From Salinispira pacifica (GTDB lineage Bacteria > Spirochaetota > Spirochaetia > DSM-27196 > Salinispiraceae), in contig NC_023035.1 in assembly GCF_000507245.1 (NCBI RefSeq), positions 2,399,570 to 2,463,569 of the forward strand: a stretch of DNA of 64,000 bases, in the 5' to 3' direction. The position numbers and the translations under genes are program-made. The notes under the pieces were generated by a model. The model worked only from the letters and a program-made list of their open reading frames with translations. It ran no database searches and was not told the DNA's origin. Shown one piece after another: positions 38,606 to 60,362 of the stretch; position 1 is the stretch's first letter; the number at the start of each line of letters is the position of its first letter.

Positions 38606-39310
38606 TCGGATGGTAAAAATCGGTGAAGAGGTCTCTGAAAAACTTCATGTGATTCCCCCCAAGATGTGGTTGAGCGAATTATTCGACCCAAATATTCCTA
38701 TCATGTGTGTGAAGGATCCGGCGATGAAGATAAGCCAGCCGTCCGAATTGCACCGGTACAGCCGGCAATTATCGATAAAAGCATTGCTACCCCCGCACTT
38801 CTTGCTTTTGTAATCGTAAACAAGTTTGTGGATCATCTGCCCTACTACCGGCAGGAAAGCCGGTTTGAGCGTATCGGCATCCATATTTCCCGGCAAAACA
38901 TGAGTCACTGGCAGAATTCGGTATATAAGCGGATCAAGCAGCTTATCAGGCAGTTCAAAACACACATAAAAACCGGCCAGGTCGTGCATATGGCCTGGTC
39001 GTAATCCTTCGGATTACTGCCCGGCCAGGCATCCGGGATGAAACCACCGCTCAAGTGATGAAAGAAGTAGGCGGAGATAATACTTCCAAGTCATATATGT
39101 GGCTTGCCCGGGGTTGGTCGCTGCCTACGGCAGCTGCTTCGTAAGAATCGCCCACGAGCAGAAAGTTCAAGCACCATGTACTTCCTTATTGAAACAGCAA
39201 AAGCGAATGGTCTCGATCCTCACCGCTATTTGCTCAAGCTGCTCGAAAAGGCTCCTCTGGCTGCATCGGAAAACGACTGGATTTCGCTGTTGCCTTGGAA
39301 TATCGAGTAG
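38606..39310 (+). pseudogene. IS66 TnpC transposase remnant
   Basis: Fragments in different frames match IS66 TnpC. They are EVSEKLHVIPPKMW, then a shifted frame VERIIRPKYS to SHWQNSVYKRI, then DETTAQVMKEVGGDN, and finally the C-terminus LIETAKANGLDPHRYLLKL to LLPWNIE. A 44-bp hairpin element is inserted immediately before DETTAQ, splitting HM from DETT. The region between GGDN and the C-terminus is deleted. Confidence 0.8.
38992..39035. repeat. Hairpin element, GACCAG family, inside IS66 tnpC
   Basis: The 44-bp insert begins GCCTGGTCG, contains a perfect seven-bp hairpin GTAATCC/GGATTAC with loop TTC, and closes with CTGCCCGGCCAGGCATCCGG. Removing it restores the expected TnpC junction CAT-ATG followed by GATGAAACC. 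The outer arms GCCTGG/CCAGGC also pair. Confidence 0.75.
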
Positions 39311-41467: not shown

Positions 41468-43053
41468 GTGCATGAAGTGCACGGTTTTTGCGAAAACCAG
41501 GCAAAAACCCTTGCACCTGTTTTCTTGGCGGGAGGGATTGTGTATAGAACTGAGGACAAAACGCAGCTTTCATTTGAAGATTTCTATCTCCCATTTGGAG
41601 GCAAACTGAACCCCAATAACCGCTGGGTACAGCTTGCTGATTTAATTCCCTGGGAAGATTTAGAAGCAGAATACGCCTCACAGTTTGCTATCGAAAGCGG
41701 GCAAGGCGCTCCGGCAATACAGTTTCGGACAGCTCTGGGTGCCCTGATTATAAAGGAAAAATTAGGAATTACAGATGAGGAAACCGTGGAGCAGATTCGT
41801 GAGACGCCTTACCTGCAATATCTCATCGGAATGCAGGGGTACCAGGATGAGGCTCCTTTTGATCCATCCATGCCTGGTCACTCGCTACGCTCGTTGCCCG
41901 GCCGTGCATCCGGGATGGTGCATTTCAGAAAGCGAATCAGCATGGACATGATCACTCACGCAAATGAATTGATTATTGCCGAAGAACGTAAAAAAAAACT
42001 GAAGATGATACGGAAGCTGAAAAAGAAGAAAATTCTGAGGTAGAAAACAGCGGAAAGCTTCTGATTGATGCTACCTGTGTGCCCGGTGATATTCGCTATC
42101 CCACCGATCTTTCGCTTTTAAATGAGAGCCGGGAAAAACTGGAAACCATCATAGACGTTATTCACGCAGAACGGCCCAAGGGCGCGACAAAACCCCGAAC
42201 ATACCGGCAAAGGGCGCGAAAGGATTTTTTGGCTGTCATCAAAAAGCGCAAAGCGAGCAAGAACAAGATTCGCAAGGCAATACGCAAGCAGCTGGGGTAC
42301 ATACGCCGTAATCTCCGGCACATAGAGCAATTAGCAGCAGGTGTCAGTTTGAAAATCCTGTCACGGAAACAGTACCGGAATCTGCTGGTGATCTCAGAAG
42401 TCTTTCGCCAGCAGGCCCTGATGTATGAAAACAAAGATCATCGAATGTCAGGCCGGATCGTGAGCATATCCCAACCCCATATTCGCCCCATAGTCAGGGG
42501 AAAAGCCGGTACCCCGGTTGAGTTCGGCATGAAGATTTCATCCGCCAATATTAACGGGTACATGTTTATCGACCGATTTTCATGGGATCCATACAACGAG
42601 TCTGGTGATTTAGACATGCAGGCTGAAAATTACAAACAGAGATATGGCGTGTATCCGGAATCAATACACGCCGATCAGATTTACCGCACCAGGGACAACC
42701 GAAATTGGTGCAAGAAACGGGGAATCAGATTATCTGGTCCACCACTGGGTCGTCCACCGAAAGATCGTGGAGAAAATCGGGAACGAAAGAAGCTGGCCCG
42801 TCAGGATGAGCTGGATAGAATCGCCGTTGAAGGGACATTCGGTAGAGCAAAACGACGGTACTCAATGGGTCGATTAATGACAAAGCTTTCTGAGACCAGT
42901 GAATCGCAGGTGGCCATGATCATGCTGGTGATGAACCTGGAAAAGATTCGCATGGATCTTTTTTACGTCTTTATCATAGCTATGCTACGCAGCCGAAAAA
43001 TTCCGAAGTCTCATTTCCCCGTGGTATTGGGGTATGGTAATATGGCAGCATAG
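41468..43053 (+). CDS. IS5-like transposase requiring a -1 frameshift at A9
   Basis: The first frame (41,468-42,043, GTG start) gives FEDFYLPFGGKLNPNNRWV to MVHFRKRISMDM. It then runs into CGT followed by nine A and ends 14 codons later. Slipping back one base on the A-run joins the second frame, which continues TEDDTEAEKEENSEVENSGK, LLIDATCVPGDIRYPTDL and then the C-terminal catalytic region (NINGYMFIDR, HADQIYRTRDN, GTFGRAKRRYSMGR). The joined protein is about 530 aa. A 42-bp hairpin element is inserted in frame between FDPS and MVHF. Activity is uncertain. Confidence 0.75.
41873..41914. repeat. Hairpin element, GACCAG family, inside IS5-like transposase
   Basis: The 42-bp insert starts CCTGGTC and ends GCCCGGCCGTGCATCCGGG, matching the element in IS66 tnpC at both ends with a different interior (ACTCGCTACGCTCGTT). 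It adds 14 residues to the transposase without shifting the frame. Its interior pairs less well than the other family members. Confidence 0.6.
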
Positions 43054-47318: not shown

Positions 47319-47414
47319 TTTCTGAAAAGAATCAAGGCTGAAGAGATCGGATTCGCTACCGTTGTGAATAAGATTACGGAGCAGCTTTATCCCATATACA
47401 TTAACTTGAAATAA

Positions 47415-48040
47415 TAGAGACTATACACCAGTTAAAGAACTTTCCATACCAAGGTATGTCCCATGACCGGGCAACTCTCGATCCTTTAGCATAGAACTGG
47501 GTTGACAATAATCCGCTATAGAACCAATAAATCCAACCCCATCCCGCCATTCTGTCAATCAATCGCCTTATCGAAGAGTGTTTCCATCCGGGAATTACTC
47601 ACGGGTACTCTTACTCTCTATTCGTGTCACCACCGGACTAAAATTGCATAATTTCACCGGTTCTAAATTGCAGTAATACATTCCAAACCTGCAAGCTGAA
47701 GTCGCATGCGGTCACTTCGCACAGAATCTGTCCATTCAGATCCTCGGTAATAGCCGGGACGTCAATTCGCATCATTTCCTGAATAGGGACCAATATCAAC
47801 ATCGCTCCCGGAAAAAGTGTTGGTCTGGAAAGAAAGCGTATCCTTGCCCAATACCCATAAAAACGACCTACGGCCAAATTTTCCTTCAGAAAATGTGACC
47901 AAAAGTGTGACCAAATTGATGCTCAAGACCTGGAATTAATCGAAATTTCGACCTACGGCCAACTGATACATATTTTTCTAAATTATTACAATACAAAGCT
48001 TTATAAAAGCTACTATAACCAACCAAAATTTTGCCTTCGA
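47415..48040. other. Non-coding interval before attR
   Basis: No convincing gene is seen. The interval contains GACCTACGGCCAA twice (about 47,869 and 47,950) and TGTGACCAAA twice near 47,891, relatives of the repeat at 32,041. A minus-strand open frame at 47,638-47,877 has no ribosome site or recognisable family. Confidence 0.5.
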
Positions 48041-48055
48041 GCCTTCTAAGCCGTA

Positions 48056-48103
48056 CATCGGGTCGAACCGGAAGCCCGAAGGGCTGAGGACCGATCCCGA
48101 ATA
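48056..48103. repeat. Hairpin element, GAGGAA family, in attR (copy A)
   Basis: The outer arms CGGGTCG/CGATCCCG pair with one bulge. The internal-loop strands are AACCGG and GAGGAC. The inner hairpin is AGCCC-GAA-GGGCT. TA is present at both edges. The insertion interrupts the tRNA-Arg 3' copy. Confidence 0.7.
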
Positions 48104-48119
48104 GGTCGCACGTTCGAGT

Positions 48120-48170
48120 AAATTGCGTACCGCAGCGGCAAATAGCCGATGTGAGGAACGCGATGACAGT
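48120..48170. repeat. Hairpin element, GAGGAA family, in attR (copy B)
   Basis: The outer arms ATTGCG/CGCGAT pair with one G-U. The loop strands are TACCGCA and GAGGAA. The inner stem is CGGC/GCCG. AGT flanks the insertion on both sides. Confidence 0.7.
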
Positions 48171-48188
48171 CGTGCTGGACGCGTCCAT

Positions 48189-48222
48189 AAAAAAAGTCGA
48201 TCTGAAAAGATCGGCTTTTTTT
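48189..48222 (+). terminator. Native tRNA-Arg terminator, displaced by the island
   Basis: The stem GTCGATCT/AGATCGGC with loop GAAA is followed by seven T. The pairing extends through the A and T runs to GTCCATA/TATGGAC. It directly follows attR, where the tRNA 3' end would have been before integration. Confidence 0.75.
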
Positions 48223-48235
48223 ATGGACCTCTACT

Positions 48236-48356
48236 GAAGCGCGACTCGAAGCGAGGAGCCGCCGAGCGAATAGCGGGGACAAGCGCCCCGGACGGGCGCG
48301 GCAGGCGACGAGACGCCCGGAAGGAACCAGACAGGAAGTCTGGCGACTGGAAGGTG
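48236..48356. repeat. GC-rich hairpin cluster
   Basis: Adjacent hairpins include CTCG-AAG-CGAG, GCGCCC-CGGAC-GGGCGC and CCAGAC-AGGAA-GTCTGG, joined by GGCGAC- and GGAAGG-type linkers. It resembles the hairpin elements in attR but does not share their loop strands. The 125 bp after it to higA is AT-rich and empty. Confidence 0.5.
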
Positions 48357-48482
48357 AATTCCCCAGTTTCGTAGGCATCTGTTAAACTCAGTTATAGTGG
48401 CAAACTATTCACATCTATGCCTTTATATGAAATAATTTTGCAGGTGTATGGAGTATAGGGTGTATATACCCGTGGAGGAGAT

Positions 48483-48776
48483 TCACGATTTAACTACAGG
48501 CGGTATCTTCTCAAGCTCCCCGGCAATCTTTTTCCGTTCTCGCCTTAGGTCGTATTCATCCTGAATGCCCAGCCAGAAATCAGCGGAGTTCCCAAAATAC
48601 TTCGCCAGGCGCAGAGCAGTATCTGCGGTGATCTTCCGATTACCTTTGAGTACCTGAGAAATCCGTGTTGCGGGTACGTTAATATCCTTGGCGAGGCGGT
48701 ATGCTGTTATCTCCATGGGTTGTAGAAACTCTTCAAAAAGTATTTCACCAGGTGTGATAAGTGGTATTGAATCCAT
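48483..48776 (-). CDS. higA: HigA-family antitoxin
   Basis: I set the start at ATG 48,776, which follows a strong AGGAG, giving MDSIPLITPGEILFEEFLQP. The 97-aa helix-turn-helix (AYRLAKDINVPATRISQVLK, then ITADTALRLAKYFGNSADFW) is typical of HigA, which neutralises HigB and represses the operon. The toxin gene upstream is dead, so the antitoxin is an orphan. Its last 165 bp recur at 57,187-57,353 beyond the Wadjet operon. Confidence 0.88.
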   Translation of the reverse strand: MDSIPLITPGEILFEEFLQPMEITAYRLAKDINVPATRISQVLKGNRKITADTALRLAKYFGNSADFWLGIQDEYDLRRERKKIAGELEKIPPVVKS

Positions 48777-48786
48777 GTTTTCTCCT

Positions 48787-48963
48787 ATGATCGCTAATCG
48801 GTTTGTACCGCAACTGCAAAGCAGCGAGGAACAATCCCGACAGAGCGAAACAGCCGTGTACCGCAGTCCATAAGGACGAGGAACATGGCGAGTAGCAGGT
48901 CGCAACGCGACCGACCAGGCACGGATGCATGGCCGAGCAGGTCGCAACGCGACCGACCAGGCC
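48787..48963. repeat. Four hairpin elements between higB and higA
   Basis: Copies C (TACCGCA-CTGC-AAA-GCAG-GAGGAA) and D (outer GCCGTG/CATGGC, inner GTCC/GGAC) of the GAGGAA family are followed by two copies of the GACCAG family (GGTCGC-AAC-GCGACC). They fill the space between the toxin and antitoxin genes, which is normally a few to a few tens of bases. Confidence 0.7.
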
Positions 48964-48964
48964 C

Positions 48965-49247
48965 CTAATGATAGTCGGTTATCTCGACATCGCTAGCCGA
49001 ACCATTCTCCCATCGAAAGCAGATGCGATACTGATCGTTGATTCGGATGCTATACTGCCCTTTCCGGTTTCCTGAGAGTTGCTCCAAACGATTTCCCGGG
49101 GGTAACTCTCAAATCGTTCAGATCTTTCGCCCTGTGGATTATTATCAGTTTTCTCAGGCCCGTTCGCTGAATATCCCGAGGAAATCGCTTTGAGTATGTC
49201 TCATTCCAGATTTTCTAGGTTTCTTTGTCAATGAACGATTCGATCAT
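48965..49247 (-). pseudogene. higB: HigB toxin, inactivated
   Basis: The minus-strand sequence reads MIESFIDKET, TAG, KIWNETYSKRFPRDIQRTGL, then RKLIIIHRAKDLNDLRV. A one-base insertion near CCCGGGAAAT follows, after which the frame continues RLEQLSGNRKGQYSIRINDQ, then YRICFRWENGSASDVEITDY and H-stop. This is a RelE/HigB-type ribosome-dependent RNase with both an amber codon at position 11 and a frameshift. It is therefore not functional. Confidence 0.85.
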
Positions 49248-49447
49248 CAAAAGATATTATCGCTTAACGTTACTATCGTCAAGCGTTAATACCAATTGTT
49301 TCAAGTACCAAATAAAGCATCGAAACGAAATAGAATAAATTTCTTGTGCATATCCCAGACTAACTAAGACATGAATGTACCTTCGAATAGGAGGTTAATT
49401 GCTGTCTTCAAAATCAGAGCAATTCCACAAATTAAAATGCTTTGTGT

Positions 49448-49792
49448 TTACAGGAACTCGCCACAGCCTTTGCATGATAAAGCAGTTGGTTCATTTGTTG
49501 TCTGACATTTCTTGCAATATTTAGGATTGCCTCCAGAGGCAGTATTCTTATGAGCATTAGGATACATCTTCTGATCTCCATAAAAATGTTCCTTTGGGCT
49601 GGAAGTGTAACTTTTGCTTTTGCTCGGTGAAGTTTTTGCTTTTCCCAATACAGCAAGTACAAAAATCGCTATCAGAGGGCTAATGAAGAAGGAGATGAAT
49701 ACCCATCCACCTACACTACGATTCCTTTCTCCAGCAACTTTGGCTACAAGAACTGTAAAAATTATCCATACTATTACGCCAAAAATAATCAT
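49448..49792 (-). CDS. Small membrane protein with C-terminal zinc ribbon
   Basis: The 114-aa protein has two N-terminal hydrophobic helices (IIFGVIVWIIFTVLVAKVA and WVFISFFISPLIAIFVLAVL), a Ser/Lys-rich linker, and a zinc ribbon CKKCQTTNEPTALSCKGCG at the C-terminus. It would be anchored in the inner membrane with the ribbon in the cytoplasm. Function unknown. It lies alone between HigBA and Wadjet. Confidence 0.6.
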   Translation of the reverse strand: MIIFGVIVWIIFTVLVAKVAGERNRSVGGWVFISFFISPLIAIFVLAVLGKAKTSPSKSKSYTSSPKEHFYGDQKMYPNAHKNTASGGNPKYCKKCQTTNEPTALSCKGCGEFL

Positions 49793-50481
49793 GAAAGCGA
49801 CCTCTCAATGAATTTAGTATAAATTATCATTTATGCTTATAAGTTGATAATTATTTCTAAGTCAATTTAACTGGTAACGTGCATTATGTACATTCAATAA
49901 AATAATTTCTCCATCTGGAAAATATTTTGCATAAAAACATAAAGAGTTGGAAAGAACCTATTAACAATGTAGAAGCAGCGTGAATAGATAGAAAGAATTC
50001 TGCCCTGCCCAAGAAATCAAGCTCTGAACACTTCAACAGTGGATGGATTAAATCAAAATCCTTGATCAGAAGGAATCCTCTATTCACAGTTTGGTACGTG
50101 TTTCAATTTCGAGCTCCGAATCTCGTCCCGTATTTTATTCCATTGGAGTGGGGATTTAGGCACTGCTTCCCCGAAATCCCCAGAGTGGAATATCAGACGT
50201 ATTTTACGCATCAGCTTACGATTTTCAGTAGAAACAGGTTTTCGATAATTTTTCTTACTCGTAAAAGTCAATCTTTTATTGATCAGACGTCTTTGCCGCG
50301 CCAGGAGAGTCTCTGGTTTTACAATTGAAAGATGAGTAATTGCTCTAATTTATGGGGCTCTAATCAAAGGGAGGCAGATGCGATCAGAGTGATGTGAAGA
50401 AATTTGAATAGGTGGTTTTTTGATGTCTACAAAACCGGAGAATTCCAATCCGGTAAAGCCGGGGCGGTTTACTCCTGCTCT
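49793..50481. other. AT-rich gap with an IS3 terminus scar
   Basis: No gene is supported. At 50,450-50,471 CCGGTAAAGCCGGGGCGGTT matches, in reverse, the terminus of the IS3 element at 40,953. It is therefore the scar of an IS3-type insertion next to the end of jetD. Confidence 0.6.
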
Positions 50482-51663
50482 TTAAGACGGATCAGCCAAC
50501 TTTAAATCCATCTCACTCATCACATACTGAATGGAAATTCGTTCCTGCTCCAGTCTGTTTGGATTACCTTTCAGTGAATTCTCATGAAGATTCGTAAACA
50601 GTCGAACCTCATCACTATTCAGGTGCTCAGGAAGCGGAATGGCGGGGGTTGAATCTATGGTAGCGAAGCTGAAAAAATCTTGAAAGGTACTTACAGACAT
50701 ACATACCGATATGATATCCGGTCGCACGGCTCGCAGCCGGGAGAGAATATCCAGGCCATGGGCATCGCAGTCACCGAAATACAGAATTGTTTTACTACTT
50801 ATCCAATCCTGTTTTACCAGATCGACTGCGGCATATCCCATACCATCGATGGCCAATACTCCATTCCGTGGTTCGAGACAGAGAAAGCTGAGATGATTTT
50901 CTATGATGATGATGTTCTGTATGTGTTTGAGGAGATTGTCCTTCATTTCGTGAAGAAATATTTCGAAGTCGAGAATGCCTTGCAATGGCGAATCATCGGG
51001 GTGTAAGAAACGGAATCTGAACCTTCGTCTCTCCCGGGCAAATCCGTATCGCCTCGGAAAATCTTTGAAATGCTTCCGCTGTTCAAGCCATTCAGGATCC
51101 ATTCCGATTCTGAACCATGCGGCCAATACCCGTTTGTGCTTTTCTATCAGTTTGGTATGGACCCCATGAAGGTGCAACTCTCTTAAAAACGGGGTCTGAT
51201 CAGGATGATTAACCCGCCAGCGGTATACACAGAGCAATGCATCCAGATCAGGTGCTATTTCAAGAAGTACAGGATAGTTTTCGCCGTCCCATCGCAAAAG
51301 CTCCGGAGCTTCCCTGTCTATTTGCTCCAAAATTGACCTAACCCGGGAATATTCTGTACTGCGGCCAAGAATATCAGCATGTGTTCCAGCATCAGAGATG
51401 AGAACAGATTCCGGTATCCGCTGTCTCCCGTAAGCTCTGCTGCCCTCCTCCCGGTAGTTGAGAGAGAGGGAGAATCTCCCGCAATCTTCCTCAATTTCGT
51501 GTTTCCACCGGAGAAACTCATCCATGCGTCTGGCAATCTGAGATAAGGGGAAAGGCCGCTTGAGGACGATCTGAAGTGGGTAAACCGAGTCAGAATACAT
51601 ATCCTGAAAAGCTGAGCCAGATTCATAACTTCTGGCGATAGCCCTGAATAGTTCCTGGTTCAT
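50482..51663 (-). CDS. jetD: Wadjet JetD (Toprim-type nuclease subunit)
   Basis: JetD is the nuclease subunit of Wadjet anti-plasmid systems and cuts DNA extruded by the JetABC loop-extruding complex. The 393-aa protein has an N-terminal DUF3322-like part and a C-terminal Toprim-like (DUF2220) part. The latter has a Glu in IIENHLSFLCLEP and the metal-binding DxD in TILYFGDCDAHGLDILSRL. Its start overlaps jetC by four bases (ATGA). It is intact and last in the operon. Confidence 0.9.
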   Translation of the reverse strand: MNQELFRAIARSYESGSAFQDMYSDSVYPLQIVLKRPFPLSQIARRMDEFLRWKHEIEEDCGRFSLSLNYREEGSRAYGRQRIPESVLISDAGTHADILGRSTEYSRVRSILEQIDREAPELLRWDGENYPVLLEIAPDLDALLCVYRWRVNHPDQTPFLRELHLHGVHTKLIEKHKRVLAAWFRIGMDPEWLEQRKHFKDFPRRYGFARERRRFRFRFLHPDDSPLQGILDFEIFLHEMKDNLLKHIQNIIIIENHLSFLCLEPRNGVLAIDGMGYAAVDLVKQDWISSKTILYFGDCDAHGLDILSRLRAVRPDIISVCMSVSTFQDFFSFATIDSTPAIPLPEHLNSDEVRLFTNLHENSLKGNPNRLEQERISIQYVMSEMDLKLADPS

Positions 51664-53405
51664 ACGGTTTTACCGGCTTCAACAGTGTTGCGTTTTTCAA
51701 TGAAGGTTTCAATATCAGTGGTGTAGAGCATGGAATGGCTTGACTCATTCTTATGGGTCAAGCCTACTGTAGATACATACTGTTCGATTATCGGGATATC
51801 CTTGTTGGGCGTGACAAGAAGCAATTGAAGATTAAACAGTTTAAATAGCTCCATACCGTAATGAGTGGAGTCCGAACTTGCCTTATGGAATGCCTCGTCT
51901 ATCATTACAAAGCGGAAGCTGTCGCTTCGGGTCTCTCCCAGTTTCAAACCAAATTGATATGCCAGTGACGCTGCCAGAATGGTGTAGGCAAGTTTTTCCT
52001 TTTCACCGCCCGACTTCCGGTTACTGTCGGAATAGCGTGCTACCTCCAGGTCGTCCTTACGTTGTTTTTCAGAAATCTGAAAGACCATCCAATTACGTAC
52101 ATCACAGACCTTACTTGTCCAGCGACTCTCATTCCTGAAGCGTTCAATAAGCTTCTTCACCTGAACAAAACGGGCTTCAGAAAATACATCATCTTCCCCG
52201 GAACCTGAGGAGTCTTCGGTGCAGGATCGCAGTTCGGATTTAAACTCTCGAATGACCATATCGGGATTATTCCTGGCAATAAGTTCCAGATAGCGTCCAT
52301 CTGAGAAGTTGATCTCTTTCATACTCCAATTGACGTCCCGAATGCCTTTTTCCATCTGCTCACGGACAAACTCCAGGTGTTGGCGGAATTGTACGATACT
52401 CTGTACTGTTTCTTGATTGAGCATTCGCTTGAAGCGGGTCTTAAACTGGGGAAGATCATCCTGAATAAGGTGTTCATAATACAGACGATATTCATCCAGA
52501 CTGTTTATGGTATTTCCAAACTCCCTCATATCTGCGGGGTAGAGTTTGCCGCCCAGGTTGCTCATTGATCCCACAAGCTTTTGTTCAATTTCCCGTACCT
52601 TCTCAGCAGATTTTTTCATCCTGAGTTTGTTCCAGGCAAAGAGTTCATCGATATGCTTGTGGATCTCATTCTCCGTCCGTACCGCGGGGAGTATTCCAGC
52701 CTCCTGTTGCAGCAGCTTACCTCCTGCCAATATCTCGCTCTTATAGCTTTGAAGGGGGGAGAGTTCAGACCCAAGATCCTCCAGGAGTGCATTGGTTTCA
52801 TTCAATCGGTCAGTAAGCCCTCCGATTCGCCGGTTTGTTTCGGCGATATTATTGGTACATTGTTCGAGTGCTTTTTCGAGATGGTCCCGGGTCAGCTCCA
52901 GATCCTTTAAAATATCATTTGAGTTTTCCAGCTTATGGCGTTCGTCAATCTTATCCTGATACAGTGCTGTTAAAGGTTTAATATCAAGATTTTTAAAACT
53001 GTCGAGAAACAGCAGGTTATTGCAGACCTTCTGCATATCACTGAGGTTACGGTCATCAAACTTACATCGCTCCAGATGTTCTTCATTCTCCTGAATCTGT
53101 CCGGAGAGTTCGTCTATCCGCATTTCAAGCGTGCGAATCTTTTCACGGGTATCCCAGCCGAGAATGTAGCGGCTACGATCATCAATTCTAAAACGATCAT
53201 CCTTGCGAAGTTGTCTGCCTCCCCGTTTTATTAATCCCTGGGGGGTGATGGCGTAGTCTGCGTAATGAAATTCCTGAATTGTTGAGCAGGTAGAGTAATT
53301 CATCCGCCTGAGGATTTCCTGTTGAATCCACGGCATATATGGATTGCCCGGATAGAATTCAAGCTTGTTGTAGACCGATTGCCGCTCCATGCCACGGGTT
53401 TTTAA
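51660..53405 (-). CDS. jetC: Wadjet JetC, C-terminal part (after amber codon)
   Basis: This part continues in the same frame after TAG at 53,406-53,408 as LKTRGMERQSVYNKLEFYPG. The internal Met at 53,390 could start a 576-aa polypeptide, but no ribosome site precedes it. It contains the rest of the hinge, long coiled coils, the ABC signature SGGEK (about residue 460 from that Met) and Walker B FVMIDEAFHK. Without the N-terminal Walker A half it cannot form an SMC ATPase head alone. Two-chain assembly or stop-codon readthrough would be needed. Confidence 0.85.
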   Translation of the reverse strand, partial: LKTRGMERQSVYNKLEFYPGNPYMPWIQQEILRRMNYSTCSTIQEFHYADYAITPQGLIKRGGRQLRKDDRFRIDDRSRYILGWDTREKIRTLEMRIDELSGQIQENEEHLERCKFDDRNLSDMQKVCNNLLFLDSFKNLDIKPLTALYQDKIDERHKLENSNDILKDLELTRDHLEKALEQCTNNIAETNRRIGGLTDRLNETNALLEDLGSELSPLQSYKSEILAGGKLLQQEAGILPAVRTENEIHKHIDELFAWNKLRMKKSAEKVREIEQKLVGSMSNLGGKLYPADMREFGNTINSLDEYRLYYEHLIQDDLPQFKTRFKRMLNQETVQSIVQFRQHLEFVREQMEKGIRDVNWSMKEINFSDGRYLELIARNNPDMVIREFKSELRSCTEDSSGSGEDDVFSEARFVQVKKLIERFRNESRWTSKVCDVRNWMVFQISEKQRKDDLEVARYSDSNRKSGGEKEKLAYTILAASLAYQFGLKLGETRSDSFRFVMIDEAFHKASSDSTHYGMELFKLFNLQLLLVTPNKDIPIIEQYVSTVGLTHKNESSHSMLYTTDIETFIEKRNTVEAGKTV

Positions 53406-55028
53406 CTAGATTTCCTCATCCAGATCCACCGGCTCCGCCACCAGAAGGCTTCGCAAATGATTATTGTTGATCCACTTTTCGATTTCCTCCTTCCGGGACA
53501 ATGGAAATAAAAGGGTTCTGGCAAATGAATTAAGGTGACGTTCTATTGCACCTTCCCACAACCGCTGGTCTTCTTTTACTGCAACAAGCTCGGCAATAAA
53601 CGGGAGCTCCTCAACGGCGATATCCAGCTCTTCACACATTTTTTGCCGTATTCCAAGTGTCTTGAGGTCGATATTATTCTTCCGGCCGCGGAGGCTCAGC
53701 GTTTCCTGCTCAATATCGGAACGTTCGTCCTTCAGTGCCTTGATAGAGGATGAAAGCTCGATAATACGTTCCTGTAAATCCTTCTTTCGCTCCTCAATTG
53801 AATCAGCTTTTTCCCGGATGTCCTGCTTGTTTTGTTCGAAGTCAACCTCGGCTTCGGGAAACGGCAGGGCAAGTTGCCGGATCAAACGACGGTACGTATC
53901 AGCATGGTGTCTGACAGCCTCAAGACGAGTTGAAATATCGTCAATTTCGATCTTCAATTCATTCAGTCGCTGCCCACCGTTCTGCGCAATTGCGCCACGG
54001 GTGCTTTCAAGATCCGTGTTAACATCCCTCAGCTTACCGGTCAGTCGTGTGAGCACCTGTTCTTTGGAAGCAAGTTCAACACTGAGACGACCCTGCTCAT
54101 CCGAAGCAAAATCATAACGGAGAAACTTTCCGAAGGGTGAGATCAGTTCTTCATTTTTTGCATAGCGTTGATAATCTTCGTTATGCCCTTCCCATTTTCG
54201 GACATCCTCAAATAGTCGGTCCATATCTTCCCGCTGTCTCTCCAGCTCTTCCAATCTGTCATGAACGTTCGAGAGGTTATCAAAATGAGAAATCAGCGTA
54301 TCAAGCTGCTCAGCGGGATCATTCGGCTCAAGCATAAGCTGACGAATAAAGTCAGTGTAATTGTCTACCTGTTTCATACTGATTGTTTTATGAAACAATT
54401 CAAGGGGCTGATCACTTTTCATGGCAAACAGGCGCTGAAAGGATTTGGCATATGCGCTGAACGACGGATGCAGTTCAGTTCCGGGAAGGGTTTGGATATA
54501 TTTGCGAATATCGGCAAGCTTTGTTGGTATTTGTGCAAAATGTTCCTCTATGCGCAGCGGATGACGGGAAATAACATAAAGTCGTTCAATCTGTGAGGAT
54601 CGATCACGGGCATACATAATCTGGCAGAGGGTTACTGTTTGATCGGTGCCTTCATTATAAAAACGCGCGAGAAGAATACTCAGATGTTTTGCATCCGGGC
54701 GGAGAGAAACATCCCTCACCGACGTTTCATCTTCAGAATACACTGTGTTATATGTACCGTAAAAATAGTCGCGGATTTTCCGCTCCACCTTGGACCCTCC
54801 GGATGCCTGGTTGTAGCGCACCCGGTGAGCGGGGTACAGAAGGGTTGTGATGCCGTCAATGAAGGTTGATTTACCTGATCCGTTGGGGCCGGTAATCAGA
54901 CCGCTTTTACCTTTCAGGGGCAGGGTAACGACATGATTATGGAAGGTTCCCCAGTTATACATCTGCATATAGTCCAGGCGAAAACCCGCACTGCTGTCAT
55001 CATTGTAAAACTCGAACATATCGCTCAT
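53406..55028 (-). CDS. jetC: Wadjet JetC, N-terminal part (ends at in-frame amber)
   Basis: JetC is the SMC/MukB-like ATPase of Wadjet. This 540-aa part has the Walker A motif GPNGSGKST (residues 47-55), the head segment and a descending coiled coil. It also has part of the hinge (LWEGAIERHLNSFARTLLFP). It ends LDEEI at TAG (53,406-53,408). The frame does not change across the stop, so one base substitution accounts for the split. It overlaps jetB by four bases. Confidence 0.88.
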   Translation of the reverse strand: MSDMFEFYNDDSSAGFRLDYMQMYNWGTFHNHVVTLPLKGKSGLITGPNGSGKSTFIDGITTLLYPAHRVRYNQASGGSKVERKIRDYFYGTYNTVYSEDETSVRDVSLRPDAKHLSILLARFYNEGTDQTVTLCQIMYARDRSSQIERLYVISRHPLRIEEHFAQIPTKLADIRKYIQTLPGTELHPSFSAYAKSFQRLFAMKSDQPLELFHKTISMKQVDNYTDFIRQLMLEPNDPAEQLDTLISHFDNLSNVHDRLEELERQREDMDRLFEDVRKWEGHNEDYQRYAKNEELISPFGKFLRYDFASDEQGRLSVELASKEQVLTRLTGKLRDVNTDLESTRGAIAQNGGQRLNELKIEIDDISTRLEAVRHHADTYRRLIRQLALPFPEAEVDFEQNKQDIREKADSIEERKKDLQERIIELSSSIKALKDERSDIEQETLSLRGRKNNIDLKTLGIRQKMCEELDIAVEELPFIAELVAVKEDQRLWEGAIERHLNSFARTLLFPLSRKEEIEKWINNNHLRSLLVAEPVDLDEEI

Positions 55029-55651
55029 TCGGATGGTGCTCCCTCGCTGTCGCCATACCGTTTATTGGCATATTCTGCATATATTTCAAGCTGCTCGGCC
55101 ATGGAGCTCACCAAAGCAGCATCCACATAGGCTTTGATTACGCGACTGATTTCGACCCTCTCCTTATCCCCTGGAATGGGAGAGATAAAACCCATATCCT
55201 TTACTTTTTTCAGATCAGCACTAAACTCATCCTTCATGCGGGCTTTATTCGTACCGTCCTTGTTGGCAAGGCGGATACGGTCAAAAATCACTTCAGTACT
55301 TACCACACAGCGATGTGATCCATCAGATGCATCGTATTCATCCAGCATTTTCCGCAGCATAACCAGCAGATAGCTTACCCGGTACGGCAACTGGGTACGC
55401 ATCGTAAGCCGGGGTCCCTCACCGCCTTCTTCAATATCCATCCCGCGTAGATGGGCAAACCCCTCAACTTCATCGACGATGAGTTTGAGACGAAGAAGCT
55501 CCAGATGATTGCTCACCGCTTTCAGCCGTTTCTTCAGGATAGCCCACAGACGCTGCTGCTTCTGGTCACCATGCCTCAATATCCAGGTTCCCTTCAGCAG
55601 AGTTATAAGGACATCAGACAGTTCACTATTTGTTTCGTCCATTATGCTCAA
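55025..55651 (-). CDS. jetB: Wadjet JetB (kleisin-associated, DUF4194-type)
   Basis: This 208-aa protein corresponds to the MukE-like JetB subunit that binds the kleisin JetA and the SMC JetC. The winged-helix-like region includes YRVSYLLVMLRKMLDEYDAS and DLKKVKDMGFISPIPGDKER. Overlaps of four bases on both sides (ATGA) tie it to jetA and jetC. Length fits the family. Confidence 0.88.
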   Translation of the reverse strand: MSIMDETNSELSDVLITLLKGTWILRHGDQKQQRLWAILKKRLKAVSNHLELLRLKLIVDEVEGFAHLRGMDIEEGGEGPRLTMRTQLPYRVSYLLVMLRKMLDEYDASDGSHRCVVSTEVIFDRIRLANKDGTNKARMKDEFSADLKKVKDMGFISPIPGDKERVEISRVIKAYVDAALVSSMAEQLEIYAEYANKRYGDSEGAPSE

Positions 55652-57099
55652 GGTGCTGTCTCCTCGTCTTCAGGCTTATAAAAAATAATATTCGGGACTG
55701 ACCGGGCAACCCGCCGATTCCCCGCCTGGTCATACCAGCTTATATCGACCCCGTCTTCAGTTAGAATAATTCCCTGAAACTGCGAATCGACAAGAGCAAA
55801 ATACCCGACTATTTCTTCCAACCCAGCAACGGGATATGCTTCCACCAGTCTCTGCAAACTTGTCTGTGACTCCTTGCTGAGCTGGATAGCGATGTGTCGT
55901 GTAAGTAATTCAAGATTCATCTGTGTTTCAGGAATAATATCCACCAGATCGGGTAAATCCACTGCGGTATCGGTCACACCTTCAACCTTTAACTCCGCAG
56001 CCGGGGAAAAAAGCGGCCGATCGAAGGGCACAGAAATATCGAGTTTGCGATGCTCGAGCTCCAGTACAAACTCCCGGGGGGGATGCTTCGCAAGTGTAAT
56101 CGCCAGTCGTTCAATATCATTGAGAAGCTGATGCATTCTCCTCGATTCCCGTGTTGACTGTTCCTCAAGAAAGCGTCTCAGTGACTGAGCCACATAGGAA
56201 AGGGTCTTCTGGGCAGTTTCATTGGCTTCAAGAAGTTCAAAATAAAAGTTATCAAGAATCGAAGTGTCGAGTTTCTGAACGGCAGCTAAGGAATGAATTT
56301 TACCAATATGTTCCTGGAGACTGGCATTCTGATTCGCATTCATCAGAAGACGGCCAAATGCATGAAACGACTGGCCTTGAGGTGAATTGTCTATACTTCC
56401 ACGGAACTGGAGAATATCGCGGATAATTTCTGCCCGATTTTCACCGGCCTGGGCAACCTGTTCACGGATGCTCTTATTCAGTTCCTCGAACTCCCGGGTC
56501 ACACTGCGGATATCGGTTACCAATGAGTTTGCGATGCTGGATATATGCCGATAAGTATCCTGGACAGTCCGATCATCCATCATTTTCATACGGTTCTCTC
56601 CAATATCATTCATCTGATTCTGGAGAGCTTTTATCTGTGTGCGAAGCGCTTTTCGCCTGAGTGTCGGATCCTCTTCGCTTTGGGTAACAAGGTTTTCAAG
56701 TTCCCGCAAGAGGGTGGCCAGCTTTGTATCGGTAGCCGTATAGCTGGGATTCAGCTGGGCCTGCAGAAATTGGAGGGCAGAATCGATTCCTGCGGTCATC
56801 CGGTAGTGTGGCTCATCTTTCCCCCGAGGATAAAAACTGTCCAGCCACCCCCTATCCCCGCTGCTCCATTGTGTGAGATATTTTTCCGGGGTCTGGAAAC
56901 TCTCCTCAGGATAATCACGTTCCAAAAGTCCTAAATAAGACTCAAGTTCATATAGATAATCTGTACGCGATACAGGATTTCGGGAGTATTTATCGATGAT
57001 CCGCTGAAAAAAACCTAGAATTAATGGTGCGGTAGTTGCAGCAAGAAGTTTCCAGGCTGCATTGTTCTTGTGATAATAGCGTAGATCATCATATGTCAT
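55648..57099 (-). CDS. jetA: Wadjet JetA (MukF-like kleisin, DUF3375-type)
   Basis: This 483-aa protein is the first gene of the operon. The N-terminal segment (KNNAAWKLLAATTAPLILGF) and helical middle with a winged-helix C-terminal part match the DUF3375 JetA subunit of type I Wadjet. It would bridge JetC heads as a kleisin. No clear ribosome site precedes ATG, so the start may be slightly different. Upstream lies only an 87-bp gap and the higA remnant. Confidence 0.88.
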   Translation of the reverse strand: MTYDDLRYYHKNNAAWKLLAATTAPLILGFFQRIIDKYSRNPVSRTDYLYELESYLGLLERDYPEESFQTPEKYLTQWSSGDRGWLDSFYPRGKDEPHYRMTAGIDSALQFLQAQLNPSYTATDTKLATLLRELENLVTQSEEDPTLRRKALRTQIKALQNQMNDIGENRMKMMDDRTVQDTYRHISSIANSLVTDIRSVTREFEELNKSIREQVAQAGENRAEIIRDILQFRGSIDNSPQGQSFHAFGRLLMNANQNASLQEHIGKIHSLAAVQKLDTSILDNFYFELLEANETAQKTLSYVAQSLRRFLEEQSTRESRRMHQLLNDIERLAITLAKHPPREFVLELEHRKLDISVPFDRPLFSPAAELKVEGVTDTAVDLPDLVDIIPETQMNLELLTRHIAIQLSKESQTSLQRLVEAYPVAGLEEIVGYFALVDSQFQGIILTEDGVDISWYDQAGNRRVARSVPNIIFYKPEDEETAP

Positions 57100-57186
57100 A
57101 GATAATTCAAGTATTACATGCTTTAGATAAACATGAAAGATAGATCTGATTATGTGGATATGGTTTTTATGTACCGAACCGAAAAT

Positions 57187-57353
57187 TCACGATGCAACTA
57201 CTTGCGGTATCTTCTCAAGCTCACCGGCAATCTTTTTCCGCTCCCGCCTCAGATCGTATTCATCCTGAATCCAGAAATCAGCGGAGTTCCCGAAATACTT
57301 CGCCAGGCGCAGAGCAGTATCTGCGGTGATCCTTCGATTACCATTGAAAACCT
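57187..57353 (-). pseudogene. higA 3' remnant, direct repeat of 48,487-48,660
   Basis: The frame ITADTALRLAKYFGNSADFW, then QDEYDLRRERKKIAGELEKI is nearly the HigA C-terminus, with a six-base deletion removing two residues and no N-terminal half. About 90 percent of bases match the intact higA end. The two copies flank the Wadjet operon in direct orientation. Confidence 0.8.
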
Positions 57354-57365
57354 GACGCCTTCCCT

Positions 57366-57755
57366 TCACCAGATCCGTGAAATTCCGAACTGATCCAGTT
57401 TAGTATCTTTGCTGAGGAGGGGATTACCTTCAATTAATGATTGGGCGCTGAGCATCCGGTCGAAAGGATCTCGATGCTCACCGTTGAGCATGCCCGCTTT
57501 CAGGGCATGCTCGGCGCTGATATCGAGGTAGTCGAAGTGATCTTCGTTTATTCGCTTCTGCCATTGTGCGATTATTTGTTCTCCCTGTGGCAACTTTCCA
57601 ATTCGTGTTTTGGTAGAAATCTCCCAGGCAGATGCAGCACTCACAATTATGGTGTTCATGGGGTTTTCGATCAGGGAGCGGACCGCATCACTCAGTTCGT
57701 TTTCAGCCGACCACCACCACAGGAGGCAATGAGTATCCAGAAGGTAACTACTCAT
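57366..57755 (-). CDS. PIN-domain toxin (VapC-like)
   Basis: The 129-aa PIN-domain RNase has acidic residues in LLDTHCLLWWW (first Asp), AASAWEISTK (Glu) and HRDPFDRML (two Asp). VapC toxins cut tRNA or rRNA; the target here is unknown. It overlaps the Phd-type antitoxin gene by four bases, which is upstream in the same direction. All catalytic acids are retained, so unlike HigB it appears intact. Confidence 0.9.
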   Translation of the reverse strand: MSSYLLDTHCLLWWWSAENELSDAVRSLIENPMNTIIVSAASAWEISTKTRIGKLPQGEQIIAQWQKRINEDHFDYLDISAEHALKAGMLNGEHRDPFDRMLSAQSLIEGNPLLSKDTKLDQFGISRIW

Positions 57756-57973
57756 CCCCAGACATCCAGTTCCGATTCAGGAAGTTCATCGAAAAAGCTG
57801 TCGGGGATTTCCATAGGGTAGCGTCCAGCAGTTCTCGCCGCCTGCGTATCCAGCGGCATGAGGCGCGCATACGGTTTTCCTGCTTTAGCGATGATCACAA
57901 CTTCACCATTATGAGCCTTTTCAAGAATTGCCGAGAAATGAGTCTTCGCCTGGTGGACGTTTATCTTTTCCAT
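57752..57973 (-). CDS. Phd/YefM-family antitoxin
   Basis: The 73-aa protein MEKINVHQAKTHFSAILEKA has the Phd N-terminal DNA-binding fold, with AGKPYARLMPLD at the end of that domain. A short C-terminal toxin-binding tail follows. It represses its promoter and neutralises the PIN toxin. The 43-bp hairpin array begins 47 bp upstream of its start. Confidence 0.9.
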   Translation of the reverse strand: MEKINVHQAKTHFSAILEKAHNGEVVIIAKAGKPYARLMPLDTQAARTAGRYPMEIPDSFFDELPESELDVWG

Positions 57974-58019
57974 ATAGTTAAATTAGTCCACCACATGGAC
58001 TAAGTCAAGCATCCGGACG

Positions 58020-58319
58020 CATGGGCAAGCAGGTCGCAGCGCGACCGACCAGCCCCCGGTTGCATGGGCGAGCAGGTCGCAGCGCGACCGACCAGCCCCC
58101 GGTTGCATGGGCGAGCAGGTCGCAGCGCGACCGACCAGCCCCCGGTTGCATGGGCGAGCAGGTCGCAGCGCGACCGACCAGCCCCCGGACGCATGGGCGA
58201 GCAGGTCGCAGCGCGACCGACCAGCCCCCGGACGCATGGGCGAGCAGGTCGCAGCGCGACCGACCAGCCCCCGGTTGCATGGGCGAGCAGGCACGGAGTG
58301 CCGACCAGCCCCCCGGACG
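58020..58319. repeat. 43-bp tandem array, seven units, GACCAG hairpin family
   Basis: Each unit reads CATGGGCGAGCAG, then a hairpin GTCGC-AGC-GCGAC, then CGACCAGCCCCCGG and TTG or ACG. Units begin at about 58,020, 58,063, 58,106, 58,149, 58,192, 58,235 and 58,278. Unit 7 replaces the inner stem with GGCAC-GGA-GTGCC, which still pairs. The repeats are contiguous with no spacers, so this is not CRISPR. Open frames reading through the array are artefacts of its period. Confidence 0.9.
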
Positions 58320-58323
58320 CATG

Positions 58324-58371
58324 GTATCGGGATCGTTCCTCAGCGCTTTGCGCTTGCGGTACGACCCTTGG
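58324..58371 (-). repeat. Hairpin element, GAGGAA family (copy E)
   Basis: On the minus strand the outer arms are GGGTCG/CGATCCC with one bulge. The loop strands are TACCGCA and GAGGAA, and the inner hairpin AGCGC-AAA-GCGCT. It directly abuts the 43-bp array. The remaining 100 bp to the next gene hold nothing recognisable. Confidence 0.7.
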
Positions 58372-58472
58372 GCGAGCAGCAGTGAAGCAATCCATCCTGC
58401 CGAGAACTGTACACTGAGGGCATTAATACGATAGTGTCCGTGCATATTTAAAAACTTACCAGGAATATACCC

Positions 58473-60362
58473 ATGCCAGGTGCACCTCCACAACATACGA
58501 CTGTACTTGTTTCCTGCCATATTGATGGCGCAATTCATGCTGTGCCATTGGCAGCCGAAACCCTGAAAACCTATTACCTTCATGGCAGCACACCGGTTTC
58601 ATCAGAGCTGGACATTCTCACGGCGGATTTTTCAACATCTGACTCGCCGGAAATGGCTGCAGCATCCATTCTTGCCCGCAAGCCCGGCAGTGTGGGGTTC
58701 TCCATGTACATCTGGAACCGCAGCTTTTGCCTGGAAACAGCCGAGATTATCAAAAACCGTGCACCGTCCGTCATTTTGTACACAGGAGGGGCGGAGGTGA
58801 CGGCGGACCCGGAATCGTTGGATCGGGAATCTGTGATTGATTACATCCTGCCCGGAGAGGGGGAACTACCTTTTCGTATCCTCATGGACTACATCAAAAG
58901 CCTTCACTCACCGCATACAAAAAACCGGGAGGAAAAACCAGCCCGGCTTCTTTCCAGATCAAATATCCATGATATCAGGACACTGCCATCACCATATCTG
59001 GAGGGGAACGGGATGACCGAGAATGGCGGAGAGCCCCGACGGGTTTTGCTCTGGGAGTTGTCCCGGGGCTGTCCTTATAACTGTGCGTTCTGCGCCGAAT
59101 CACGGGGAATTGCAGGTGTGCGATATATCAGCATGGAGCGGATTGAGGCGGAACTGAAACTGTTTGAGCGGCAGGGAGTTGAGCAGATTTTTGTTCTTGA
59201 TCCCACGTTTAATACCGGGCATGACAGGGCCATTGAAATTCTCGGACTCATCGCAGTCCATGCTCCGTCTATTCATTTCACATTCGAGGTGCGGGCCGAG
59301 TTGCTTAATGTGGAGCAGGCCGAAGCGTTCTCCAAGATCCGCTGCTCCCTCCAAATCGGTCTCCAAAGCGCAGACTCCGACGTGCTTAGGTATGTGAACC
59401 GATCAATCCGGCCCGATATGTTTATGGAAAAAATCGGCCATTTAAATGAATACGGAGTGATCTTCGGTCTGGATCTGATCTACGGATTACCGGCGGATAC
59501 TCTCCAGGGATTCCAAAGAAGCCTGGATTTTGCACTATCATGCCTTCCCAACCATCTGGATATTTTCCGGCTGTCAGTGTTTCCCGGAACAGAACTGCAT
59601 GAAAAGGCTGATTCCCTCGGGCTCATCCGACAACCTTCCCCACCCTATGCGGTGCTTGGAACTGACGATTTCAGTGAGCAGGAGTTGAGCCGTGCAGAGG
59701 AGCTTGCCGCCGCCGCAAACCGTTTCTACAATCAGGGTGCTGCGGTTGCATGGTTCATGCCGGTCTGCGATGCGCTGGAAATGCGCCCCTCGGAATTTCT
59801 GGGTTTTGCAGCAGATATCCATGAAGAGAACGGGGCTGCAATTCAGACCGGTGACGGGTTCCATCCTGACCCACTGATGCATTGGCAGCTTGAAGTGCTG
59901 CGCCTGGCTTTCAGAAAACACAAGAAGAAGCGTTACGGCAAGGTTGCCGCCGATCTATGCCGTTACCACCACTACTATGCCAGGGCTCTGAAAGAAGCGG
60001 ATCTGGCTGAAGATGCCGGAAATCCGGAGGCACAGATCAGCCGGGGCGCAGTTCTCAGACGCAGTTCCCAGCTGTATCTTGCCGACTTCAACTATGACGT
60101 GAATTTGTACACAGAACCGGGCATGTTTTCGCTGGAAGATTTTGTGCGGGAATACGATCCCGAACCTTCTTTTGCCATGATATTTGCCGCAACCGGGGAG
60201 ATAGTAACCCTCGCACTTGAGGAACCGTACTATGTGCTTCTTACAAAGATAAACGGATCTGATACACTGAAAACCCTGCTTGAGCAAACCGGATTGTCAT
60301 TCGATGACGTAGAGGATCTGCTGGTTTTTCTTCACAGCAACGGCCTCATGCATGTTTGCTGA
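58473..60362 (+). CDS. B12-binding radical SAM protein
   Basis: The 629-aa protein has an N-terminal cobalamin-binding-like domain (ADFSTSDSPEMAAASILARK, YTGGAEVT) and a radical SAM core with cluster motif CPYNCAFC at about residues 203-210. Later segments GLQSADSDVLRYVNRS and GLDLIYGLPADTLQGF are standard for the B12-radical SAM group. A C-terminal DUF4080-like extension follows. AGGAATATACCC precedes ATG. The substrate is unknown. Confidence 0.85.
   Translation: MPGAPPQHTTVLVSCHIDGAIHAVPLAAETLKTYYLHGSTPVSSELDILTADFSTSDSPEMAAASILARKPGSVGFSMYIWNRSFCLETAEIIKNRAPSVILYTGGAEVTADPESLDRESVIDYILPGEGELPFRILMDYIKSLHSPHTKNREEKPARLLSRSNIHDIRTLPSPYLEGNGMTENGGEPRRVLLWELSRGCPYNCAFCAESRGIAGVRYISMERIEAELKLFERQGVEQIFVLDPTFNTGHDRAIEILGLIAVHAPSIHFTFEVRAELLNVEQAEAFSKIRCSLQIGLQSADSDVLRYVNRSIRPDMFMEKIGHLNEYGVIFGLDLIYGLPADTLQGFQRSLDFALSCLPNHLDIFRLSVFPGTELHEKADSLGLIRQPSPPYAVLGTDDFSEQELSRAEELAAAANRFYNQGAAVAWFMPVCDALEMRPSEFLGFAADIHEENGAAIQTGDGFHPDPLMHWQLEVLRLAFRKHKKKRYGKVAADLCRYHHYYARALKEADLAEDAGNPEAQISRGAVLRRSSQLYLADFNYDVNLYTEPGMFSLEDFVREYDPEPSFAMIFAATGEIVTLALEEPYYVLLTKINGSDTLKTLLEQTGLSFDDVEDLLVFLHSNGLMHVC

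What the first reader, a model, noticed from the sequence alone, without database searches (positions are those of the whole stretch)
58020..58371. 43-bp hairpin tandem array with a compensatory stem in the last unit
Seven contiguous units upstream of the Phd-VapC antitoxin each form a hairpin. Six use GTCGC/GCGAC, while the seventh uses GGCAC/GTGCC with a different loop yet the same flanks, then a GAGGAA-family element follows. It could be a tandem expansion of the mobile hairpin, a structured RNA leader for the toxin-antitoxin operon, or a protein-binding array.
Basis: seen in the sequence. Interest (0 to 1): 0.5.

Follow-up and report, generated by a model that had tools for sequence, protein, structure and literature searches.

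The report
Mobile hairpin array with rewritten stems
Next to a toxin-antitoxin pair sit seven copies in a row of a tiny, apparently mobile DNA hairpin whose edges and inner motif are the same in two bacterial phyla while its stem letters differ from copy to copy yet still pair, and the enzyme that moves it could not be found.

Summary
The array is real: seven contiguous units, 58012-58311, period 43. Units 1-6 share one stem; unit 7 has another stem and loop between the same flanks. The unit belongs to a dispersed family, GGNYGCAT-GGGC-GAGCA-[stem-loop]-GACCA-GCC, with 57 copies in this genome and copies in Spirochaetes and Firmicutes. Of 127 different inner sequences picked by flanks alone, 100 have at least four consecutive pairs, against 12.9 after shuffling arms; the outer stem covaries too. 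Occupied and empty sites show clean insertion. Loops are C-GNA-G 41 times and C-TNC-G once, so one strand is the folded one; GNA loops are the ultra-stable DNA mini-hairpin type (PMC4686876), which favours single-stranded DNA, as for REP elements. But the tag is GCAT, not GTAG, no Y1 transposase is found in this complete chromosome, and Y1 does not associate with the element (10 of 31 versus 21 of 69 genomes). Best reading: tandem expansion of a REP-like mobile hairpin with an unidentified mobiliser; probably not a TA leader.

The parts
58012..58054 (+). array unit 1 (internal-loop variant GCAAGCA)
58055..58097 (+). array unit 2, stem GGTCGC/GCGACC
58098..58140 (+). array unit 3, same stem
58141..58183 (+). 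array unit 4, same stem
58184..58226 (+). array unit 5, same stem
58227..58269 (+). array unit 6, same stem
58270..58311 (+). array unit 7, different stem GGCAC/GTGCC with loop GGA
58312..58324 (+). left part of an eighth unit (CCCGGACGCATGG), interrupted; GGGCGAGCAG resumes at 58370
   Evidence: by reading
58329..58367 (-). element B: GGGTCGT-ACCGCA-[stem]-GAGGAA-CGATCCC
48805..48832 (+). another B element
   Evidence: converted to window coordinates
48858..48917 (+). composite: B arm then A stem (GAAACA-B-GAGTAGCA-stem-GACCA)
48920..48963 (+). A element
38992..39037 (-). A element
39115..39138 (-). A element core (internal loop and stem)
41871..41914 (-). A element inside ORF 41468-42043 (+), which reads through it
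57983..58003 (.). perfect inverted repeat TTAGTCCA-CCACA-TGGACTAA, probable Phd operator, between phd and the array
   Evidence: seen; function inferred
57752..57973 (-). Phd/YefM antitoxin (neighbour)
   Evidence: PF02604 1.1e-11
57366..57755 (-). PIN-domain (VapC-type) toxin (neighbour)
   Evidence: PF01850 5.1e-15
58473..60362 (+). B12-binding radical SAM protein (neighbour on the other side)

Best explanation
The array is a head-to-tail expansion of a miniature mobile hairpin ('A element', mostly 41-52 nt) of a family shared by Spirochaetes and Firmicutes. SHOWN: the edges (GG-N-Y-GCAT on the left, GACCA-GCC on the right) and the 5x5 internal loop GAGCA/GACCA are almost invariant; the inner stem-loop is free in sequence but must pair; the outer 4-bp stem covaries; copies sit at sites for which empty versions exist, with no target duplication beyond shared C's. 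INFERRED: the strand that carries GCATGGGCGAGCA folds as single-stranded DNA (GNA mini-hairpin loops, tandem G.A pairs), and an enzyme reads tag, lower stem and internal loop while the upper stem serves only as a clamp, much as for E. coli REP and TnpA-REP. The element inserts at C-rich sites, often after YCC; the near-invariant GG next to that CC may act as a pairing guide, as in IS200/IS605. Because a unit ends in GCC(C), it offers a new site at its own end, so units can stack; slippage or unequal recombination can then copy identical units (1-6), while unit 7 with its other stem is a separate arrival or an older unit. The mobiliser is not identified.
For: Array. Family: 26 exact-flank copies in this genome, 57 by covariance model, 31 of 100 relatives. 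Of the 80 titled genome hits, 34 are Spirochaetes, 42 Firmicutes and 4 other. Pairing: 100 of 127 distinct inner sequences chosen by flanks only, shuffle mean 12.9, maximum 21 in 1000; 94.3% against 72.5% of cells paired and 9 of 10 pairs with double changes on a set already filtered for pairing. Strand: C-GNA-G 41 against C-TNC-G 1; G.A 27 against C.T 3. Insertion: empty and occupied pairs such as L173/L175 against L080/L097, L174 against L087, and several loci against L203; RHS paralogues L305 (empty) and L302 (occupied) in this genome. Tag, left motif and ends. REP comparison: passages of PMC8266576. GNA/GNNA DNA mini-hairpins: passages of PMC4686876.
Against: No Y1 transposase gene in this complete chromosome, no association in 100 relatives (10 of 31 against 21 of 69, Fisher p = 1), and none of 28 Y1 loci from element-bearing genomes has the element nearby: the proposed reader is missing. 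With RNA parameters the opposite strand folds better in 120 of 133 cores, so RNA is not excluded. Left edge spacing varies by 1-2 nt, so the exact cleavage point is not fixed. The YCC site is a tendency (87% and 81% C at -11 and -10), not a rule. Related copies inflate counts.
Confidence: 0.7

Rival explanations
1. A classical REP/BIME system: the hairpins are moved in trans by a RAYT (TnpA-REP) that was lost or diverged beyond recognition in this genome.
For: Size, imperfect palindrome, mismatch region with a free upper stem, mosaic clusters of A and B, and location between convergent or co-directional genes (20 convergent, 27 co-directional, 4 divergent) all match REP descriptions.
Against: Tag is GCAT in 99%, not GTAG. 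No Y1_Tnp here, no association, no Y1 gene next to the element in 28 loci.
Confidence: 0.25
2. A structured RNA element, for instance a 3' end stabiliser or protein-binding RNA, copied as part of genes and not mobile as DNA.
For: Covarying stems, bias to 3' ends of genes, stable RNA folding on one strand.
Against: No Rfam match, no terminator, both orientations relative to genes, copies inside coding genes and inside a group II intron antisense to its RT. GNA triloops dominate while GNRA tetraloops are few (8).
Confidence: 0.12
3. Structured leader or regulator of the Phd-VapC operon (or of TA operons in general).
For: The array starts about 40 bp upstream of phd. Other copies lie near or inside TA loci: 48.9 kb near a HigA-like repeat, L016 between higB- and higA-like reading frames (read by eye), one RelE neighbour.
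Against: Of 128 neighbouring proteins in other loci no family recurs more than twice. The probable operator lies between array and phd.
Confidence: 0.04
4. Spread by reverse transcription, in the wake of group II introns.
For: Ten copies of a group II intron carry one A element. Maturase domain in 12 of 31 carriers against 11 of 69 non-carriers (p = 0.02; p = 0.034 without this genome).
Against: 19 of 31 carriers show no maturase domain. The copies in the intron are one inherited insertion. The association may reflect mobile-element load.
Confidence: 0.08

Closest known systems
GTAG-tagged REP elements and REPtrons (TnpA-REP/RAYT)
   Same: Short imperfect palindrome, unpaired 4-nt tag 5' of the stem, mismatch region with an upper half that is not sequence-specific in E. 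coli REP (PMC8266576, passages), mosaic clusters, 3' gene location.
   Different: Tag GCAT, 5x5 internal loop GAGCA/GACCA, stem fully rewritten between copies in one genome, no linked RAYT.
CGTC-tagged REP elements
   Same: Apparently without dedicated transposase, reported in Spirochaetes among others, can lie inside genes (PMC3733652, abstract and passages).
   Different: CGTC tag and 8-9 bp stems with A/T first pairs; the element here has a GCAT tag and a GGGC/GCCC lower stem.
REPINs and IS200/IS605-derived miniature elements
   Same: Conserved ends around a variable middle; insertion without duplication as expected for Y1 chemistry (recalled; PMC3116915 seen in a search listing only).
   Different: Ends are not inverted REP copies; no Y1 gene here.
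attC sites of integrons
   Same: Recognition of a folded strand in which stem letters are free (recalled).
   Different: No attC box motifs in the consensus (by eye); integron integrase not searched.
Rickettsia palindromic elements
   Same: Small palindromic insertions that may stay in frame inside genes (recalled).
   Different: Different sequence and size; of two insertions in the RHS genes one shifts the frame and one carries a stop.

Membership tests
GTAG REP | GTAG tag 5' of the hairpin | tested here: not met
   GCAT in 99% of 142 single copies
GTAG REP | associated RAYT gene flanked by the repeats | tested here: not met
   no Y1_Tnp in this genome; 0 of 28 Y1 loci from carriers
GTAG REP | 20-40 bp imperfect palindrome in intergenic, often 3', locations | tested here: met
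CGTC REP | CGTC tag and 8-9 bp stem starting with A/T pairs | tested here: not met
   consensus
CGTC REP | no dedicated transposase found | tested here: met
IS200/IS605-type miniature element | insertion without target duplication | tested here: met
   (C ambiguity of 1-3 nt)
IS200/IS605-type miniature element | moved by a Y1 HUH transposase | tested here: inconclusive
   no gene and no association found; movement itself not assayed
attC | R and L box motifs and an IntI gene | tested here: inconclusive
   motifs absent by eye; IntI not searched
known RNA family (Rfam 15) | covariance-model match | tested here: not met
   none up to E = 1 in 47000-60000
intrinsic terminator | GC stem followed by a T run | tested here: not met

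The most novel reading that the evidence does not exclude
A transposable hairpin, shared by two phyla, that is mobilised by an enzyme outside the Y1/RAYT class which reads only the tag and the internal loop of the folded strand; the stem arms are replaced as a unit, perhaps copied anew by template switching during transposition, so that one family carries well over a hundred different stems.
Probability: 0.2. Interest if true: 0.85.

Novelty: new variant of a known kind. Interest (0 to 1): 0.58.

Why it matters
It is a natural experiment on what a mobile-DNA enzyme reads: edges and internal loop are frozen in two phyla while the stem is free but must pair. That makes the strand, the readable part and the likely single-stranded DNA state inferable from sequence alone, and it raises a concrete open question, as for CGTC REPs: which enzyme moves palindromes that lack a RAYT. 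It also gives a possible marker for exchange between Spirochaetes and Firmicutes and explains tandem hairpin arrays that can be mistaken for gene leaders.

Tried and rejected
RAYT/Y1 as mobiliser: searched in this genome, in 392 genomes of the phylum, in 18 carrier genomes and in 100 relatives; no link found. In the 392-genome exact-pattern search there were 10 carriers, 4 of them with Y1, against 164 of 392 overall; one of those 10 (G113) may be a chance coding match.

A recurrent neighbour gene (a hidden autonomous partner): nearest ORFs of carrier loci were scanned, 128 of the 136 listed; no recurrent family. The 8 left out were those of L210, L213, L215 and L218 and one long ORF of L100. 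Ten ORFs, eight of which overlap the element, were scanned one by one; nine match ordinary gene families and one matches none.

The element as a structural part of the group II intron: rejected, since the same element occurs mostly outside introns and lies antisense to the RT.

Transcription terminator, Rfam RNA and TA leader: see rivals. Literature: six searches for the element gave no description of it; two of them returned nothing and the letter search returned three unrelated papers. A seventh was on DNA mini-hairpins. Subscription journals and most preprints are not covered.

Full report
THE OBSERVATION. The array is as described: seven contiguous units between phd (minus strand, start codon at 57973) and a B12-binding radical SAM gene (plus strand, from 58473; Pfam). 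Units 1-6 have the stem GGTCGC/GCGACC with loop AGC. Unit 7 has GGCAC/GTGCC with loop GGA and is two bases shorter. Flanks are identical apart from the GGTT/GGAC alternation and GCAAGCA in unit 1. Unit 7 is followed by the left part of an eighth unit, into which the 'GAGGAA' element (B, minus strand 58329-58367) is set, by reading.

THE FAMILY. With exact flanks and a free middle the chromosome holds 26 copies, against 1 for the reversed control pattern. A covariance model (R1, from 40 copies) finds 57 copies at E <= 0.001 and eight hits in the window, among them 38992-39037, 39115-39138 and 41871-41914 on the minus strand. The stems differ from place to place: GTGTGAAACAC, ATCACGAAGTGAT, CTGACTTGTCAG, GCAGCGTAGCTGC, GTAACAAAGTTGC and others, all between GCGAGCAG and CGACCAG. 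So the odd seventh unit is not an exception; rewriting of the stem is the rule. Of the 80 with titles, 34 are Spirochaetes and 42 Firmicutes (Clostridia, Paenibacillus, Cohnella and others); the other four are Actinomadura, Candidatus Limicola, Sphingomonas and Craurococcus, and those whose inner sequences I could read pair poorly or are very short; I take them as chance. Among 100 relatives 31 carry at least one copy by the model, the richest with 60. Ten IMG/VR contigs hold a copy.

PAIRING TEST. Selecting by flanks alone, outside this genome, gave 177 copies with distinct context and 127 different inner sequences. In 100 of 127 the outermost four positions all pair; with 3' arms shuffled among copies the mean is 12.9 and the maximum 21 in 1000. 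On the 40-sequence alignment, which was pre-filtered for pairing, 94.3% of cells pair against 72.5% shuffled, and 9 of 10 pairs show double changes, including the outer stem (G-C 35, C-G 4, U-A 1 at one pair). Outer stems AGCC/GGCT, ATGC/GCAT, ATTC/GAAT and GGTC/GACC also occur. Invariant in that alignment are GG, GCAT, GAGCA and GACCAG.

WHICH STRAND, WHICH NUCLEIC ACID. Departures from perfect pairing are strongly strand-biased. In 137 stems there are 27 G.A against 3 C.T mismatches, and G.T 11 against A.C 5. Among 146 distinct stems the triloops are C-GNA-G 41 times and C-TNC-G once; there are 67 triloops and 25 tetraloops, of the latter 8 GNRA and 14 GNNA. The strand that carries GCATGGGCGAGCA is therefore the one under selection to fold. 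GNA and GNNA loops closed by G-C pairs are the 'extraordinarily stable' DNA mini-hairpins, with GCGAAGC the best known (PMC4686876, passages), and that heptamer is literally the consensus apex. DNA energies favour this strand in 127 of 133 cores, but RNA energies favour the opposite strand in 120 of 133, because the fixed internal loop can form G.U pairs there. I read this as single-stranded DNA, inferred, with RNA not excluded. Copies are related, so binomial p-values (2e-11 for 41:1, 8e-6 for 27:3) are too optimistic.

MOBILITY. Joining the two flanks finds empty versions of occupied sites: TTGTAGGGGCGTGC|ATTGCACGCCCG in L173 and L175 against the occupied L080 and L097; GCTCCGGC..CTGCGGGCGCG in L174 against L087; AAAACCGGGCTTT..CGCTGCAATC in several loci against L203; CTAATAATGG.TCC|CCGACACTTCGTG within L207. 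Many other lines of that output are only array self-matches and do not count, and the output was cut. In this genome two RHS paralogues give the cleanest case: L302 has an insertion at CATTCCGATCATC/TGGG that L305 lacks, and both share a second one; the first keeps the frame but brings a stop codon, the second shifts the frame. No target duplication is seen apart from C's that could belong to either side. Net length suggests an element from NGGNYGCAT to GCC(C), give or take one or two bases. Upstream, C is found at -11 in 87% and at -10 in 81% of 142 single copies; GG and GCAT are at 96-99%. A GG next to CC, and a unit that ends in GCC, fit a guide-pairing mechanism like that of IS200/IS605 and would let units stack head to tail. 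This is a proposal, not shown.

THE MISSING ENZYME. Y1_Tnp (PF01797) is absent from this complete chromosome. In 100 relatives it occurs in 10 of 31 carriers and 21 of 69 non-carriers (Fisher p = 1). In 18 carrier genomes 11 have Y1 matches, but none of the 28 loci L242-L269 carries the element (one weak pattern hit, in L249, is not a family member). The maturase domain of group II introns occurs in 12 of 31 carriers and 11 of 69 non-carriers (p = 0.02), which may reflect mobile-element load. Neighbouring genes are ordinary and non-recurrent (128 proteins), and flanking genes are convergent 20, co-directional 27 and divergent 4 times among 51 loci with both neighbours (64 of 151 loci lay inside a mechanically called ORF of at least 90 aa).

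RELATION TO THE TA OPERON. A perfect inverted repeat TTAGTCCA-CCACA-TGGACTAA (57983-58003) separates the array from phd and is the probable operator; this is by eye, and the promoter scan found nothing. With no consistent TA association elsewhere the leader reading is unlikely.

COMPOSITES. Element B (GGGTCGT-ACCGCA-[stem]-GAGGAA-CGATCCC; 13 exact-core copies) follows the same plan of outer stem, fixed internal loop and free inner stem. In three places of the genome (L002/L004, L003, L047), and in a more degenerate fourth match, B is set into the A loop (GAAACA-B-GAGTAGCA-stem-GACCA), like the mosaics known for REPs.

COMPARISON AND VERDICT. It works like a REP: PMC8266576 (passages) describes E. 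coli REPs with a 5' GTAG tag, a conserved mismatch bulge needed for activity and a non-specific upper half. It fails the defining tag and RAYT tests, and it also lacks the CGTC tag of the transposase-less REPs (PMC3733652, abstract and passages). I file it as a new variant of the REP-like kind, not as a member. The searches found no description of it.

Noticed in passing
L006-L015 (own genome, 10 places): Ten near-identical copies of a group II intron carry one A element between the 5' domain and the RT ORF, antisense to it.
   Followed up: partly
L024, L025, L044: Three copies of what looks like an IS110-type transposase (by eye) have two A elements in the non-coding stretch upstream of the gene, where a bridge RNA would be expected.
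   Followed up: no
own genome 2691232-2691730 (L018-L020) and 1554059-1555017 (L300): Tandem arrays of units of about 228-229 bp, each with tRNA-like fragments, a terminator-like hairpin and a B or A element; the first starts at a tRNA-Leu-like gene.
   Followed up: partly
window 41871-41914 in ORF 41468-42043: An A element is read through in frame inside a probable transposase ORF; eight places in the genome have the same model score (43.4 bits).
   Followed up: partly
L302 and L305 (own genome 1563800-1564200, 2075650-2075950): RHS-type genes with one shared and one private A insertion; reading frames are broken.
   Followed up: yes
L016 (own genome 3578822): An A element lies exactly between what read as higB and higA, before the ribosome-binding site.
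   Followed up: no
window 48481-48657 and 57185-57355: Two HigA-like segments 90-93% alike, 8.7 kb apart, each near an A/B cluster.
   Followed up: no
window 53406-57099: MksB/E/F-like (condensin or Wadjet-like) genes: DUF3375, DUF4194/MksE and AAA proteins.
   Followed up: no
L084 and L146, L104 and L091: Some stems occur with the loop in both orientations (GCGAAAGC and GCTTTCGC on the same arms), as if the hairpin tip had been flipped.
   Followed up: no
L074, L080, L097, L161, L173: In clostridial genomes the A element sits in the loop of another palindromic repeat (GTAGGGGCG...CGCCC) whose own arms covary.
   Followed up: partly
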